From: Odiellus spinosus
Lineage: Eukaryota; Arthropoda; Arachnida; Opiliones; Phalangiidae
Direction of reading: 5' to 3'
NCBI GenBank assembly: GCA_963920705.1
Contig: OY987229.1
Coordinates: 19,721,728 to 19,785,727, forward strand
Length of the DNA: 64,000 bases
Position 1 is the stretch's first letter. The number at the start of each line of letters is the position of its first letter. The position numbers and the translations under genes were made by a program. Of this stretch, positions 20,739-34,400 are shown in pieces. The notes under the pieces were generated by a model that saw only the letters and a list, made by a program, of their open reading frames with translations, made no database searches and was not told the DNA's origin.

Positions 20739-20891
20739 CTAGACGTGTTGAATGTATTCCGGATTGAGAAACGAAAATCCGAAGAATTCCGTCTGATCCA
20801 AATTCATCATGAAAAGTTTATCCGTTGGTGTTAAATCCGTCTTCTCGCTCGTAAACTGCTTGTCAAAGTTACTAACATCCTTTCGGTGTTT
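20739..20891 (-). CDS. PRKCA/B: Alternative C-terminal (V5) exon of conventional PKC
   Basis: A 50-codon exon follows an acceptor (AATTTCTAG|AAACAC) and ends in TAG. It encodes a complete PKC V5 tail: SNFDKQFTSEKTDLTPTD contains the turn-motif Thr-Pro, and EFFGFSFLNPEY is the hydrophobic motif. It begins in phase 0, exactly what the donor at 39422 needs. It competes with the exon at 31616–31455, which encodes an equivalent but clearly different tail. The distal tail is, from memory of the family, closer to arthropod Pkc53E. The two exons would give alternative kinase C-termini, which in the family affect membrane and partner binding. A last exon of another PKC gene is possible, but no kinase exons lie nearby. 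Confidence 0.85.
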   Translation of the reverse strand, partial: KHRKDVSNFDKQFTSEKTDLTPTDKLFMMNLDQTEFFGFSFLNPEYIQHV

Positions 20892-21298
20892 CTAGAAATT
20901 GCGTAAATTCGCGGACGAGAAAGAAATTTCGGGTGGAAAAAATAAAAAAAGAGAAAAAAAAAAAAAATATCTTAAAATTAGTTTAAAATATGATTTTGGA
21001 AATTGGTGACATTTCCTGAGGAGTTGAAAATAAATTGAACCAAAAATATAAAAGGTTGGAGATAATTTAAAAGAATTAAGCCTATAAGATTTGACAAGGA
21101 TGTGTTCGATGATTGTATATTGAAAAATGTCTCTTATCTAATTTAAAAATCTGTCAAAATGATTTGAAGTTTAAATTATCAATTTAATATTGACTTTAAG
21201 GATATTGAATAATTATTTCCTGTTAACTTATAAAATGATTTGAATCATAGACTATTAGTTTTCCAACATAAGTAATCGTATGTGGTTAAAAGTCTCGC

Positions 21299-21635
21299 CA
21301 GAAGCCGATGAAACCCTCCTTTGAAGTCTATTACTCCCGGGTCTTTTCTACCCCTCTCTGTATGGGTTAGTTTCAAAAAGCGCGATTCGTACGCCTCCTA
21401 ACGGTAGATATTTTCGGAGCGGGAGTTCGTCGAGCGAATATCTATAGCAGCCTTGGAGTTCGTCAAAAAAACGTCGTCGTTTGTGGAGAGAGAGAATTTC
21501 CAATTTTCCGTAGACAGGGGGGATGAAGTAGGACCCCTTAGATCTCGTAAAATTAGGAATTTTACCCATACAGAGAGGAGCGCTATATGGAACATTAGAG
21601 TAGTAGACTTCAAAGGAGGGTTTCATCGGCTTCTG
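21299..21635. mobile_element. CAGAAGCC-family MITE, copy B
   Basis: The 337-bp element has inverted ends CAGAAGCCGATGAAACCCTC and a perfect 7-bp target duplication GTCTCGC (21292–21298 and 21636–21642). Compared with copy A it is reversed and carries about 35 extra bases near 21432. The open frames within it are chance. Confidence 0.9.
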
Positions 21636-21748
21636 GTCTCGCTAAAAAAAGGATTTGTTTTACAGGGCATGATAAGGAGAGATCATTCCTTAATTATGAT
21701 ATATAGACGAGGAGCTAATCACTAAACGAAATCGGTGTACAAGCATTC

Positions 21749-21940
21749 CTATTGGCTCCCCTTTCTTTCAGACGGTAACTTTTTATTGGCTCCTCTTTCT
21801 TTCAAATGCTAGATTTATATCGGCTACCTGCTTCGCCTTTCAAATGATAATTTAGTATTGGCTACCTACTTCCTTTTAAATGATAACTTCCTATTGGCTA
21901 CCTGCTTCCTTTCAAGGGCTAACTTTTTATTGGACTACGG
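21749..21940. repeat. Degenerate minisatellite with ATTGGCT core
   Basis: About five imperfect units of 35–45 bp, each with a version of TATTGGCTACCTGCTTCCTT followed by TCAAATGATAACTT. A related array is at 37665–37775. Confidence 0.75.
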
Positions 21941-31353: not shown

Positions 31354-31380
31354 TTGTTTGTTTGTTTGTTTGTTTGTTTT
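31354..31380. repeat. GTTT microsatellite
   Basis: About six tandem GTTT units just downstream of the proximal PKC stop codon, likely in the 3' untranslated region or just past it. Confidence 0.8.
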
Positions 31381-31391
31381 CCCCCGTTATG

Positions 31392-31397
31392 TTTATT
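31392..31397 (-). terminator. Candidate poly(A) signal for the proximal PKC exon
   Basis: AATAAA on the minus strand about 60 bases after the stop at 31455. This suits a short 3' end for the isoform with the proximal V5 exon. Confidence 0.4.
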
Positions 31398-31454
31398 AAT
31401 ATTAATTAACAGATTTTATTTTTAAATTGAACTCTCATTTCTAGCAGTTAATTT

Positions 31455-34400
31455 TCAGAGTCCAGGTTTAATTTCGGCGTAAAACGGGTTGGTAAATGTG
31501 AATCCGTCAAATTCGCTGCCGGTCAAATTATTGATGACCACCATGTCAGCCGGTGTCAATGTCGTTTTCGCATTCGTGAAGATCGGGTCAAAATTTTCCC
31601 CGGATCGAGGATTTTTCTGCGCAAAAAAAAAAACAAAAAGAAAAAAAAAAAAGAAAAAAAAATGGGCAAGCCAACCAAAACAAAAATCAAAAGAATAAGT
31701 GTCTACGTCTATATTTTCTATCAATTCTATTGTGAATTATATACTACCGAAAGTCTATAACTTTATTACTTAAAAGTAAGAAACGCCCAGTAACTTAATG
31801 CTATCAGCAAAGGGCCACGTAGATATCACTCAAAACTAGTCAAAAAATCATCACCCCTCTCTGCATCGAGTGATTTGGACTCTTCCTCAAGGGGACCGCG
31901 CTTAGCTATGTTGTTTTCCCCTCCAACTCCAGAATTTCTCCCTATTTCAATATTTACACCAGGGACGGAAATAAGCACAAGTCACTGGTCATTGTCCGAT
32001 AAATTTTCCAAATGTCTGATAACTTTTTATTTTTAAGAGGGGGTCACTGGACAAATGTCCGATAAAAAAAAGTACTTTTCAATACAAGAAATGTAGCATT
32101 GTCCGGTAATTTTGTTAAATGTCCGATAACTTTTGAATTTTTAAGGGGGGTTACTGGACATTTGTCCAATAAGAAAAATTTCTTATTTCCATCCCTGATT
32201 TACACCGCTAGAGTGTCTCGAATCAGAGAATCTGGCGGTACATTTACCCGGACATTTGCTGATAGTATGAAGCTACGGGGCGTTATTTACTTTTATGGAA
32301 TAAATTGATACACTTTTGATACTACAAATTAGAGATACAATTAACAATAATTAATTATTTAAACGCGAGATTGTACAAAGCAGGATCTTTTGTTTTTAGA
32401 GTTCGGCATTTGTTTAAAAAAAAAAAAAAATCGATCTCCCACAAAATATTAACTACTTTACTTTCCAAGATAATTTAAATTTATTATTAAATTAATTGAC
32501 CAGACTGCTACATCACGGTTAAGAAAAACAGTTTATTACTAGACCCCAATTAATTCATAAACAATAATATAATCAAATAAAAAAATTTGCCTGAGAAGAT
32601 TATTTATTATTTATATGAATTGAAAAGGGCCTAACTAGTATAGGTCCAAAACGAAAGTAGCAATCTCGTTAATTATAATTTAATAATATTCAAATTTAAT
32701 CGTCGTGGTCAATAAATTTTGGGTATAGAAATAAAAAAAAAAATATCATTCTAATTTCCGAATTTTGCCCATTTGATGACGTTATAATATTGTCAATCAT
32801 CTAAAATTACAACTGAAAGCCTTCATTATGTGTTTATTTTAATTAAGCCTTCAATGTTGACTAAATGCTTAATTTGAAAGCGCCATATCTTGTAATATTC
32901 GTTCAAGATCCTATAGTGGTTATGATAACAGTAAAAACTAACGAAATCTGAGAGCGTTGGTAGATAGAATAGGTAAATATAGTTTGTTGTCCTACTATTC
33001 ATCGGAGTAAAAACTAGCAATATCTAGAAACGCTCTCAAATAATAATTCGTGTTTGTGGGCGCGGAGAGAAGAGAGATAGTTTTACTTTGCTGTGCCTAA
33101 TCTAGACTGCGAATCCTCAGACTCGGGATATTCCCGGGGAAAGATTACCACGTTAAACAATTTAACAGAATAAATTCACGAAAACATAAGATCCTCCTTT
33201 GTAGTATTTTGATTTTCATAATTCGTTATTGGTATTAGTAAATATACGCTTATATATACCAGAAATCTTGTATTGCGTGCAAGGAGTGGTGAGCTTTTAT
33301 ATTATTTTTCATATTAAAACGGTATAAGTCTATAAAATCAAGGAGGATGGATAAAAGGATAGAAAGATGTTTCGAAACTGAAGGGGAAGACTCCTCTCTG
33401 AACTTGCGCAGTTTTAGATAAAGTATAATGAATAAAACATTTATTTTTAGCTGTCTGTCTCATAAAAACAAATTTTGTACAGATGTGTACAATTAGGGGT
33501 AAAACCTTTGTAGCTTTCAAATAATTTTCTCACATCTGTCTTTCATTTTTTCTCACCTCCGTGATATAATCTTAAACCTCAAGAAATATTCTTACACGAC
33601 TTTAAAAAAAATGAATAGAAATAAAAAAGAGACACTAATATAAAAAAAGCGTGCGAATAAATGAAAATTATAAATAAAACAGCCATGCATAAAGCAGAAA
33701 TATTATTGGGAATAATTAATACACTTATAATAAATATATATCGGCCAAGGATAAGGTGAACGTAAATCAGCGCACTAATAAATTGTTAATAATGAAATAA
33801 TTGGAAGATTCTAATCACTACAGGATAAAAAAAAAAAATTAAATAAACAAAGCCAATTCGTTGAAATATTTGAGGATGAATTTGAACCTTCGATGCGATA
33901 TTTTTTTTTATCGTCAATTTCAATGACGATTTTAGCAATAATTAACTATTTCTTAATCGATTTGAAAAGGTAAAATCAAACCGATATTCAAGTCGCCAGG
34001 AATCGTTTTAAGGGTCATCTTTAATAATCAATTTATTGTAGCTTCATCTATCGGTTGTTGAAACCGAATCGGTACAAAACTGGTTCCCGAAGCAGTTTCG
34101 AGAAATCGAATCAAATCGATTCGAGAAATGATTGTTTCCCGTTCACACGAAACGTTCTGAAACAGTTTAAATAAGCCGCGTTCACACTAGAGACTTTGAA
34201 ACCGTTTTGAACCGCTTTGGAAAGGTCAAATTATAATATTTTGGGGTCACCCGTGTAGATCTTTCACCAAAAAATCCAATTAAGATCTCGAAGAGTCGAT
34301 TTGAACATTCGAAACGGTTTGAAAGAGTCAAGTGTGAACGTAACTATAGATTCCAAGGCCTAGTATGTATATAACGTTATGCGAGTTATATTTCAATATC

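What the first reader, a model, noticed from the sequence alone, without database searches (positions are those of the whole stretch)
20739..31616. Two alternative C-terminal (V5) exons for one conventional PKC gene
Exons at 31616–31455 and 20891–20739 both follow acceptors in phase 0. Both encode complete V5 tails with turn (LTPAD / LTPTD) and hydrophobic (FDGFTF / FFGFSF) motifs, and both end in stop codons with AATAAA downstream. Their sequences differ strongly. Only one set of kinase exons exists in the window, so both should splice from 39422. Vertebrate PRKCB makes beta-I and beta-II the same way; finding the layout here suggests either an ancient or a convergent switch of PKC C-termini. 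The distal exon is only 50 codons and easily missed.
Basis: partly seen in the sequence, partly recalled or inferred. Interest (0 to 1): 0.78.

Follow-up and report, generated by a model that had tools for sequence, protein, structure and literature searches.

The report
Ancient two-tail switch in PKC gene
One arachnid gene for the signalling enzyme protein kinase C carries two alternative end pieces, and relatives of both pieces occur across moulting animals and in the vertebrate PKC-beta gene, so this switch is probably very old.

Summary
One conventional PKC gene on the minus strand has a single set of kinase exons. A phase-0 donor ends its last shared exon at 39422, and two V5 exons follow: 31616-31455 (53 codons) and 20891-20739 (50 codons). 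Both match Pkinase_C above the curated cut-off. A search of the assembly shows no second conventional PKC locus.

The tails are of two kinds. The distal one is the beta-I kind: 60 bits to beta-I against 40 to alpha, and 85-96% identical to the 120 relatives listed. The proximal one belongs to a faster-evolving kind found in 25 of 179 relatives held, from mites to a priapulid and a nematode; it groups with alpha and beta-II. Ornithodoros and Folsomia have both tails on identical cores. Models from a sea spider and two nematodes hold both in the order seen here, which is also PRKCB's order.

So the arrangement is old within Ecdysozoa and probably homologous to beta-I/beta-II. A 50-column test does not exclude an independent vertebrate origin (p 0.31). 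The one cross-phylum paper seen treats it as convergence. Likely mechanism: alternative terminal exons. No RNA for this species.

The parts
63792..63918 (-). Exon with the 3' half of C1B and the start of C2 (CDMNVHKRC...GRIELKV...MICE); its upper (acceptor) boundary is approximate
   Evidence: reading frame; C1_1 match at C5:19785586-19785648, window 63859-63921, 22.4 bits, below the cut-off
43362..43518 (-). C2 exon
   Evidence: C2 match in assembled protein
42566..42794 (-). C2 exon
41758..41898 (-). Hinge and start of kinase domain exon (GKGSFGK)
41514..41687 (-). Kinase exon
41346..41437 (-). Kinase exon
   Evidence: one search had its end 3 nt off
40895..40957 (-). Kinase exon ([20 protein letters not shown])
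40424..40562 (-). Kinase exon (RDLKLDN ... DFG ... APE)
40275..40355 (-). Kinase exon
39642..39749 (-). Kinase exon
39422..39562 (-). Last shared kinase exon, ending PPFKPRI with a phase-0 donor GTAAGT
31455..31616 (-). Proximal alternative last exon, V5 type I (beta-II/alpha kind): [53 protein letters not shown], stop TGA
31392..31420 (-). Two AATAAA signals starting 35 and 58 nt after the proximal stop
20739..20891 (-). Distal alternative last exon, V5 type II (beta-I kind): KHRKDVSNFDKQFTSEKTDLTPTDKLFMMNLDQTEFFGFSFLNPEYIQHV, stop TAG
20453..20458 (-). AATAAA signal 281 nt after the distal stop

Best explanation
This is one conventional PKC gene (C1-C2-kinase-V5) with two alternative terminal exons. 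Shown from sequence: a single shared kinase part ends at 39422, and each of two downstream exons, in phase 0, completes a full V5 tail with turn and hydrophobic motifs, its own stop and a poly(A) signal. Inferred: the transcript either splices 39422 to 31616 and is polyadenylated just after it, giving the type I tail, or skips 18.5 kb to 20891, giving the type II tail. The two enzymes would share catalysis and Ca2+/diacylglycerol sensing and differ in the last 50-53 residues, and so probably in anchoring partners and location, as beta-I and beta-II do. Inferred from comparison: the pair is inherited. Type II is cognate with the beta-I tail, and type I most likely with the alpha/beta-II tails. 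Both are kept in lineages from nematodes to chelicerates and springtails.
For: Both tails pass Pkinase_C. The distal tail scores 60.2 bits to a PDB PKC-beta chain (8se2) with the beta-I tail, against 40.2 for alpha and 33-35 for beta-II chains. The chain is beta-I because its letters match the beta-I peptides KLFIMN and SYTNPEF printed in PMC10743673 (passages). The proximal tail scores best with alpha (35.7) and beta-II (33.8), and 28.8 with 8se2. Relatives: 222 of 222 candidates hit the distal tail, 120 listed, 85-96% identical. Of 179 relatives held, 25 have type I tails, 150 type II, 3 both, 1 neither. Same gene: Ornithodoros X1/X2 cores identical at 622 of 622 residues, Folsomia X2/X7 at 660 of 660, and two Ixodes species at 485 of 485 aligned, with different tails. 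Same order: Nymphon, C. briggsae and Angiostrongylus models hold type I then type II. PRKCB has the beta-II exon before the last, beta-I exon (PMC3537621 figure legend, passage). Trees: all 25 type I rows with alpha and beta-II lie on one side of a branch, 24 type II rows with beta-I on the other, 100/98 and 100% of 200 bootstrap trees; with two outgroup tails type I holds at 97/91. On the kinase-core tree of 41 rows the same labels need 13 changes, shuffled mean 15.6. The residue before NFD is E in 25 of 25 type I tails and in alpha and beta-II, and S in 96% of 24 type II tails and in beta-I. Transcripts from another arthropod: two Cherax cPKC sequences identical until the last 48 residues (PMC12608923 Table 6 footnote, passage).
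Against: No RNA for this species, so use of either junction is inferred. Holding the three vertebrate tails together, as an independent vertebrate origin would need, is not rejected (AU p 0.31, log-likelihood 6.85 lower); the same test for nematodes gives p 0.078 and for Folsomia 0.005. Pairwise scores put alpha nearer to ecdysozoan type II (mean 124) than to type I (mean 104) and beta-II likewise (110 against 99), and 5 of 25 type I tails score nearer to beta-I than to alpha/beta-II. The proximal link to alpha/beta-II rests on tree, one residue and exon order, not raw similarity. The residue count is partly circular, since sorted tails by that motif; alignment scores agree for all but one (Panagrolaimus). 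Tail-tree bootstraps had not settled and long branches are flagged. With outgroups, type II is not one side of a branch. On the core tree type II is somewhat clustered too (10 changes; 5 of 500 shuffles as low).
Confidence: 0.83

Rival explanations
1. Convergence: the ecdysozoan pair is one old event, but the vertebrate beta-I/beta-II pair arose separately by its own exon duplication.
For: AU test does not reject it (p 0.31). Alpha and beta-II tails score higher against ecdysozoan type II than type I. PMC9741552 section 17 lists PRKCB (Pkc53E, pkc-2) among families with tandem-exon events in three phyla and calls this convergence (section read in full).
Against: Beta-I scores 176 on average to type II and 95 to type I. 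The free tree puts alpha and beta-II with type I, 100/98. The exon order is the same. The Drosophila Pkc53E isoforms are described as differing in N-terminal sequence and C1 (PMC10318518 passages), so that listing may compare different exons.
Confidence: 0.17
2. Only one exon is used in this species; the other is a fading relic.
For: No RNA here. Type I tails evolve faster, and none of the 23 named type I proteins is from a winged insect, so loss is plausible in some lineages.
Against: Both frames are intact with acceptors, stops and poly(A) signals. The proximal tail keeps turn and hydrophobic motifs and is 74% identical to a Tachypleus tail over 50 columns; the distal is 98% identical to a leafhopper tail. 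A relic would not be expected to keep this.
Confidence: 0.07
3. The distal exon belongs to a second PKC gene.
For: Two trombidiform mites have separate conventional PKC genes with one tail each, 77% core identity, and Tachypleus has several.
Against: Among the candidates scored, no other locus in this assembly matches the core well, and the kinase matches on C5 lie upstream of both tails, none between them or beyond. Only two of 16 Pkinase_C matches fall on this locus.
Confidence: 0.02

Closest known systems
Vertebrate PRKCB beta-I/beta-II alternative V5 exons
   Same: One kinase part, two V5 exons, order beta-II-like then beta-I-like, stop in the proximal exon (PMC3537621 passage)
   Different: In PRKCB the beta-II exon is an included cassette and the last exon becomes untranslated; here the proximal exon has close poly(A) signals and no good donor after its stop, so alternative terminal exons are likelier
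Caenorhabditis pkc-2
   Same: The C. briggsae model holds a type I then a type II tail; pkc-2 is listed with tandem-exon events in PMC9741552
   Different: The model reads both tails in one frame; whether the mRNA does was not tested, and that the model is pkc-2 is my assignment
Drosophila Pkc53E
   Same: Conventional PKC; type II tail in the D. grimshawi relative (P0162)
   Different: Isoforms described as differing in the N-terminal/C1 region (PMC10318518 passages)
Crayfish Cherax cPKCD1 transcripts
   Same: Two sequences identical until the last 48 residues (PMC12608923 Table 6 footnote)
   Different: Not discussed in what I saw of the paper (outline, section 2.3, passages); sequences not seen, so tail types are not assigned

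Membership tests
Conventional PKC | C2 domain and kinase domain in one open frame | tested here: met
   Assembled protein: C2 2.9e-28, Pkinase 3.2e-67
Conventional PKC | Two C1 domains upstream on the same strand | tested here: met
   C1_1 matches at C5:19785586, 19790268, 19813388 and 19843051, minus strand. Two of the four are below the curated cut-off, one has a stop in its frame, and the three beyond the window were not spliced, so their membership is inferred
Conventional PKC | V5 tail with turn and hydrophobic motifs | tested here: met
   Pkinase_C on both isoforms
beta-I/beta-II type V5 switch | Two V5 exons after one kinase part, same phase | tested here: met
beta-I/beta-II type V5 switch | Distal exon of the beta-I kind | tested here: met
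   60.2 bits against 40.2 for the next kind; tree
beta-I/beta-II type V5 switch | Proximal exon of the beta-II/alpha kind | tested here: inconclusive
   Tree 100/98 and E before NFD, but AU test p 0.31 and raw scores mixed
beta-I/beta-II type V5 switch | Proximal exon spliced as an included cassette with a donor after its stop | tested here: not met
   Best site in 500 nt scores 6 of 9; 290 of 300 shuffles reach 6 or more. A crude consensus score, so this speaks for another splicing form, not against the switch
beta-I/beta-II type V5 switch | Both mRNAs made | not testable with these tools
   No RNA of this species held

The most novel reading that the evidence does not exclude
The beta-I/beta-II tail switch was already present in the last common ancestor of vertebrates and moulting animals. 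Lineages then resolved it differently: kept as splicing here and in ticks, springtails, nematodes and PRKCB; split between two paralogues in trombidiform mites; and reduced to the type II tail in winged insects. That would overturn the published reading of this gene family as convergence.
Probability: 0.7. Interest if true: 0.72.

Novelty: new member of a known kind. Interest (0 to 1): 0.62.

Why it matters
In vertebrates the V5 tail carries anchoring specificity (PMC10743673 passages), and insulin switches the choice (PMC1431701 passages). If the switch is this old, it joins the few alternative splicing choices shared by vertebrates and moulting animals; PMC9741552 counts 7 of 42 tandem-exon events as shared between human and fly. 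Nematodes, springtails and ticks would then be systems in which its original purpose can be tested. It would also give a clean case of splice isoforms being replaced by gene duplicates in mites, and perhaps of loss in winged insects.

Tried and rejected
[quoted passage not shown] I corrected it from recall of the isoform names and checked it against the peptide table in PMC10743673. The idea that exon order is reversed relative to PRKCB fell with it.

The second-gene idea was tested by family and protein searches of the whole assembly and rejected. Cassette splicing was tested with a simple donor score and found unsupported.

Ten literature searches (40 and 63 aimed at the vertebrate mechanism) gave one cross-phylum mention that I saw, PMC9741552, which speaks of convergence. 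Most listed papers were seen only as listings. A paper I took to be the 2021 one it cites for shared events was not found under the identifier I gave from recall, and the 1997 C. elegans PKC2 gene paper was seen only as a reference. Earlier statements in those are possible.

The absence of type I tails in winged insects rests on capped lists from a database merged at 90% identity, which can hide isoforms, so it is weak. Rows left out of the tail tree: of 25 type I proteins 22 were used (P0005, P0138, P0142 dropped as near copies); of 150 type II 20 were used; from the 3 double models, both tails of the two nematodes and the type II half of Nymphon; P0144 has no tail. The core tree used 40 of the 179 relatives.
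Full report
What is there. The gene lies on the minus strand. Inside the window one exon at about 63918-63792 (second half of C1B and the start of C2) is followed after an intron of about 20 kb by ten exons from 43518 to 39422. They join in one open frame of 441 codons with AG acceptors and GT donors (one donor, at 41758, is weak). The assembled proteins match C2, protein kinase and Pkinase_C. C1 matches on the same strand continue to C5:19843051; if they belong to the gene, it spans about 100 kb. 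The window is C5:19721728-19785727 of an unnamed 443-Mb assembly. Over alignments of 415 residues or more the kinase core is closest to spider proteins, 90-91%, then horseshoe crab, 89% (a 211-residue Ixodes fragment reaches 93.8%). It joins spiders in the core tree at 94/80. The organism is probably an arachnid.

The two tails. Donor 39422 can join 31616 (intron 7,805 nt) or 20891 (intron 18,530 nt), both in phase 0. The proximal acceptor has a strong pyrimidine tract (0.85), the distal a weaker one (0.60), within the range of the gene's other acceptors, 0.45-0.85. AATAAA follows the proximal stop at 35 and 58 nt and the distal stop at 281 nt. No convincing donor follows the proximal stop: best 6 of 9, and 290 of 300 shuffles reach 6 or more.

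One gene. In the whole assembly 16 places match Pkinase_C at E up to 10, two of them on this locus. With the assembled protein as query (87 of 273 candidates scored), ten matches fall at C5:19753185-19765243, nine at 83-100% identity and one at 68% that runs into an intron. Elsewhere the highest identity is 71% over 48 residues on C14, then 66-67% in the delta-like and epsilon-like genes on C3 and C7. No kinase match lies between the two tails or beyond the distal one.

Kind of each tail. Against the PDB, the distal tail scores 60.2 bits with the PKC-beta chain 8se2, 40.2 with alpha and 33-35 with beta-II chains. That chain bears the beta-I letters given in PMC10743673 (passages). The proximal tail scores 35.7 with alpha, 33.8 with beta-II and 28.8 with 8se2. 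The six-residue stretch used there for isoform-selective peptides is KLFIMN in beta-I and QEVIRN in beta-II; here it is KLFMMN (distal) and MVVINN (proximal).

Relatives. A search with the distal tail returned 222 of 222 candidates, 120 listed, 85-96% identical; the named ones are arthropods except one filed under a plant. A search with the proximal tail alone returned 4 of 8 candidates. One with the kinase end plus proximal tail returned 694 of 720, 120 listed. Of 179 distinct relatives held, 25 have a type I tail, 150 type II, 3 both and 1 none, by motif; one (Panagrolaimus) disagrees with the alignment score. The 23 named type I proteins come from trombidiform mites, horseshoe crabs, ticks, a scorpion, a spider, springtails, a centipede, crustaceans, an onychophoran, a priapulid and a nematode. 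None is from a winged insect; but lists are capped and the database merges proteins at 90% identity, so missing isoforms prove little.

Same gene elsewhere. Ixodes pacificus (type I) and I. scapularis (type II) share 485 of 485 aligned. In Dinothrombium and Leptotrombidium the two tails sit on different genes with 77% core identity. Three models carry both tails, type I first: the sea spider Nymphon (type I half truncated) and the nematodes C. briggsae and Angiostrongylus. These look like merged predictions, but they fix the order.

Age. In a tree of 52 tails, the 25 type I tails with alpha and beta-II lie on one side of a branch and the 24 type II tails with beta-I on the other, support 100/98, in 100% of 200 bootstrap trees. 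With delta- and epsilon-like tails of the same genome added, type I still holds at 97/91, but the epsilon-like tail joins it and type II is no longer one side of a branch, so the root is unsure. Both trees rest on 50 columns; bootstraps had not settled and long branches are flagged. On the core tree of 41 rows the labels need 13 changes (shuffled mean 15.6, as low in 13 of 200), with three sets of identical cores holding different tails. So tails follow type and cores mostly follow lineage, as expected of exons inherited together in one gene. Forcing both Folsomia tails together is rejected (p 0.005), both nematode tails less clearly (p 0.078), the three vertebrate tails not at all (p 0.31). 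Plain scores are also mixed: alpha and beta-II score higher against type II than type I, and 5 of 25 type I tails are nearer to beta-I. A shared origin within Ecdysozoa is thus well supported; extension to vertebrates is likely for the distal/beta-I tail and probable for the proximal/beta-II tail. The order agrees: in PRKCB the beta-II exon comes before the last, beta-I exon (PMC3537621 legend passage).

Published reading. PMC9741552, sections 15 and 17 read in full, lists PRKCB, Pkc53E and pkc-2 as a family with tandem-exon events in three phyla and writes of convergence. Fly Pkc53E isoforms are described as differing in N-terminal sequence (PMC10318518 passages), so the fly event is probably a different one; the tail comparison made here was not described in what I read. 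PMC12608923 Table 6 has a footnote that two Cherax cPKC sequences are identical until the last 48 residues (passage), which is transcriptome evidence from a crustacean.

How it likely works. Alternative terminal exons: early polyadenylation after the proximal exon gives the type I enzyme; skipping it gives type II. Both keep the turn and hydrophobic motifs needed for maturation (established PKC knowledge, recalled), so both should be active. The difference should lie in anchoring, since RACK1 specificity of beta-II resides in V5 (PMC10743673 passages). The splicing choice and the anchoring difference are inferred.

Judgement. The finding is real and of a known kind; what is new is its likely age and its different fates in different lineages.

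Noticed in passing
window 44062-48697: Copia-type LTR retrotransposon with an open gag-pol frame of about 1,370 codons (RVT_2, integrase, gag) and two copies of a 218-nt flanking repeat that are identical, so a recent insertion, in a PKC intron on the same strand
   Followed up: partly
window 54271-62145: At least two BTB-domain genes (2 of 3 open frames scanned there) lie on the same strand inside the 20-kb PKC intron between 63792 and 43518: nested genes; one has a run of [11 protein letters not shown] repeats
   Followed up: partly
Dinothrombium P0003/P0102 and Leptotrombidium P0004/P0091: Two conventional PKC paralogues per mite, one with each tail, 77% core identity: the splice switch seems replaced by gene duplicates
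   Followed up: partly
C. briggsae P0148: Gene model reads type I and type II tails in one frame without a stop between; if real, a protein with two V5 tails
   Followed up: no
P0007, filed under the plant Castilleja foliolosa: Arthropod-like PKC in a plant record, with repeated pieces of the type II tail; probably contamination and misprediction
   Followed up: no
Trichonephila inaurata P0134 and T. clavata P0028: Spiders seem to have a second conventional PKC gene (83% core identity between these two species' proteins) with a type I tail, perhaps from the arachnid genome duplication (recalled)
   Followed up: no
window 18543-18855 and 21348-21641: Two copies of a related sequence (MKPSFEVYYSNVPYSAPLCMGKI frame) on opposite strands on either side of the distal exon; probably a repeat
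   Followed up: no
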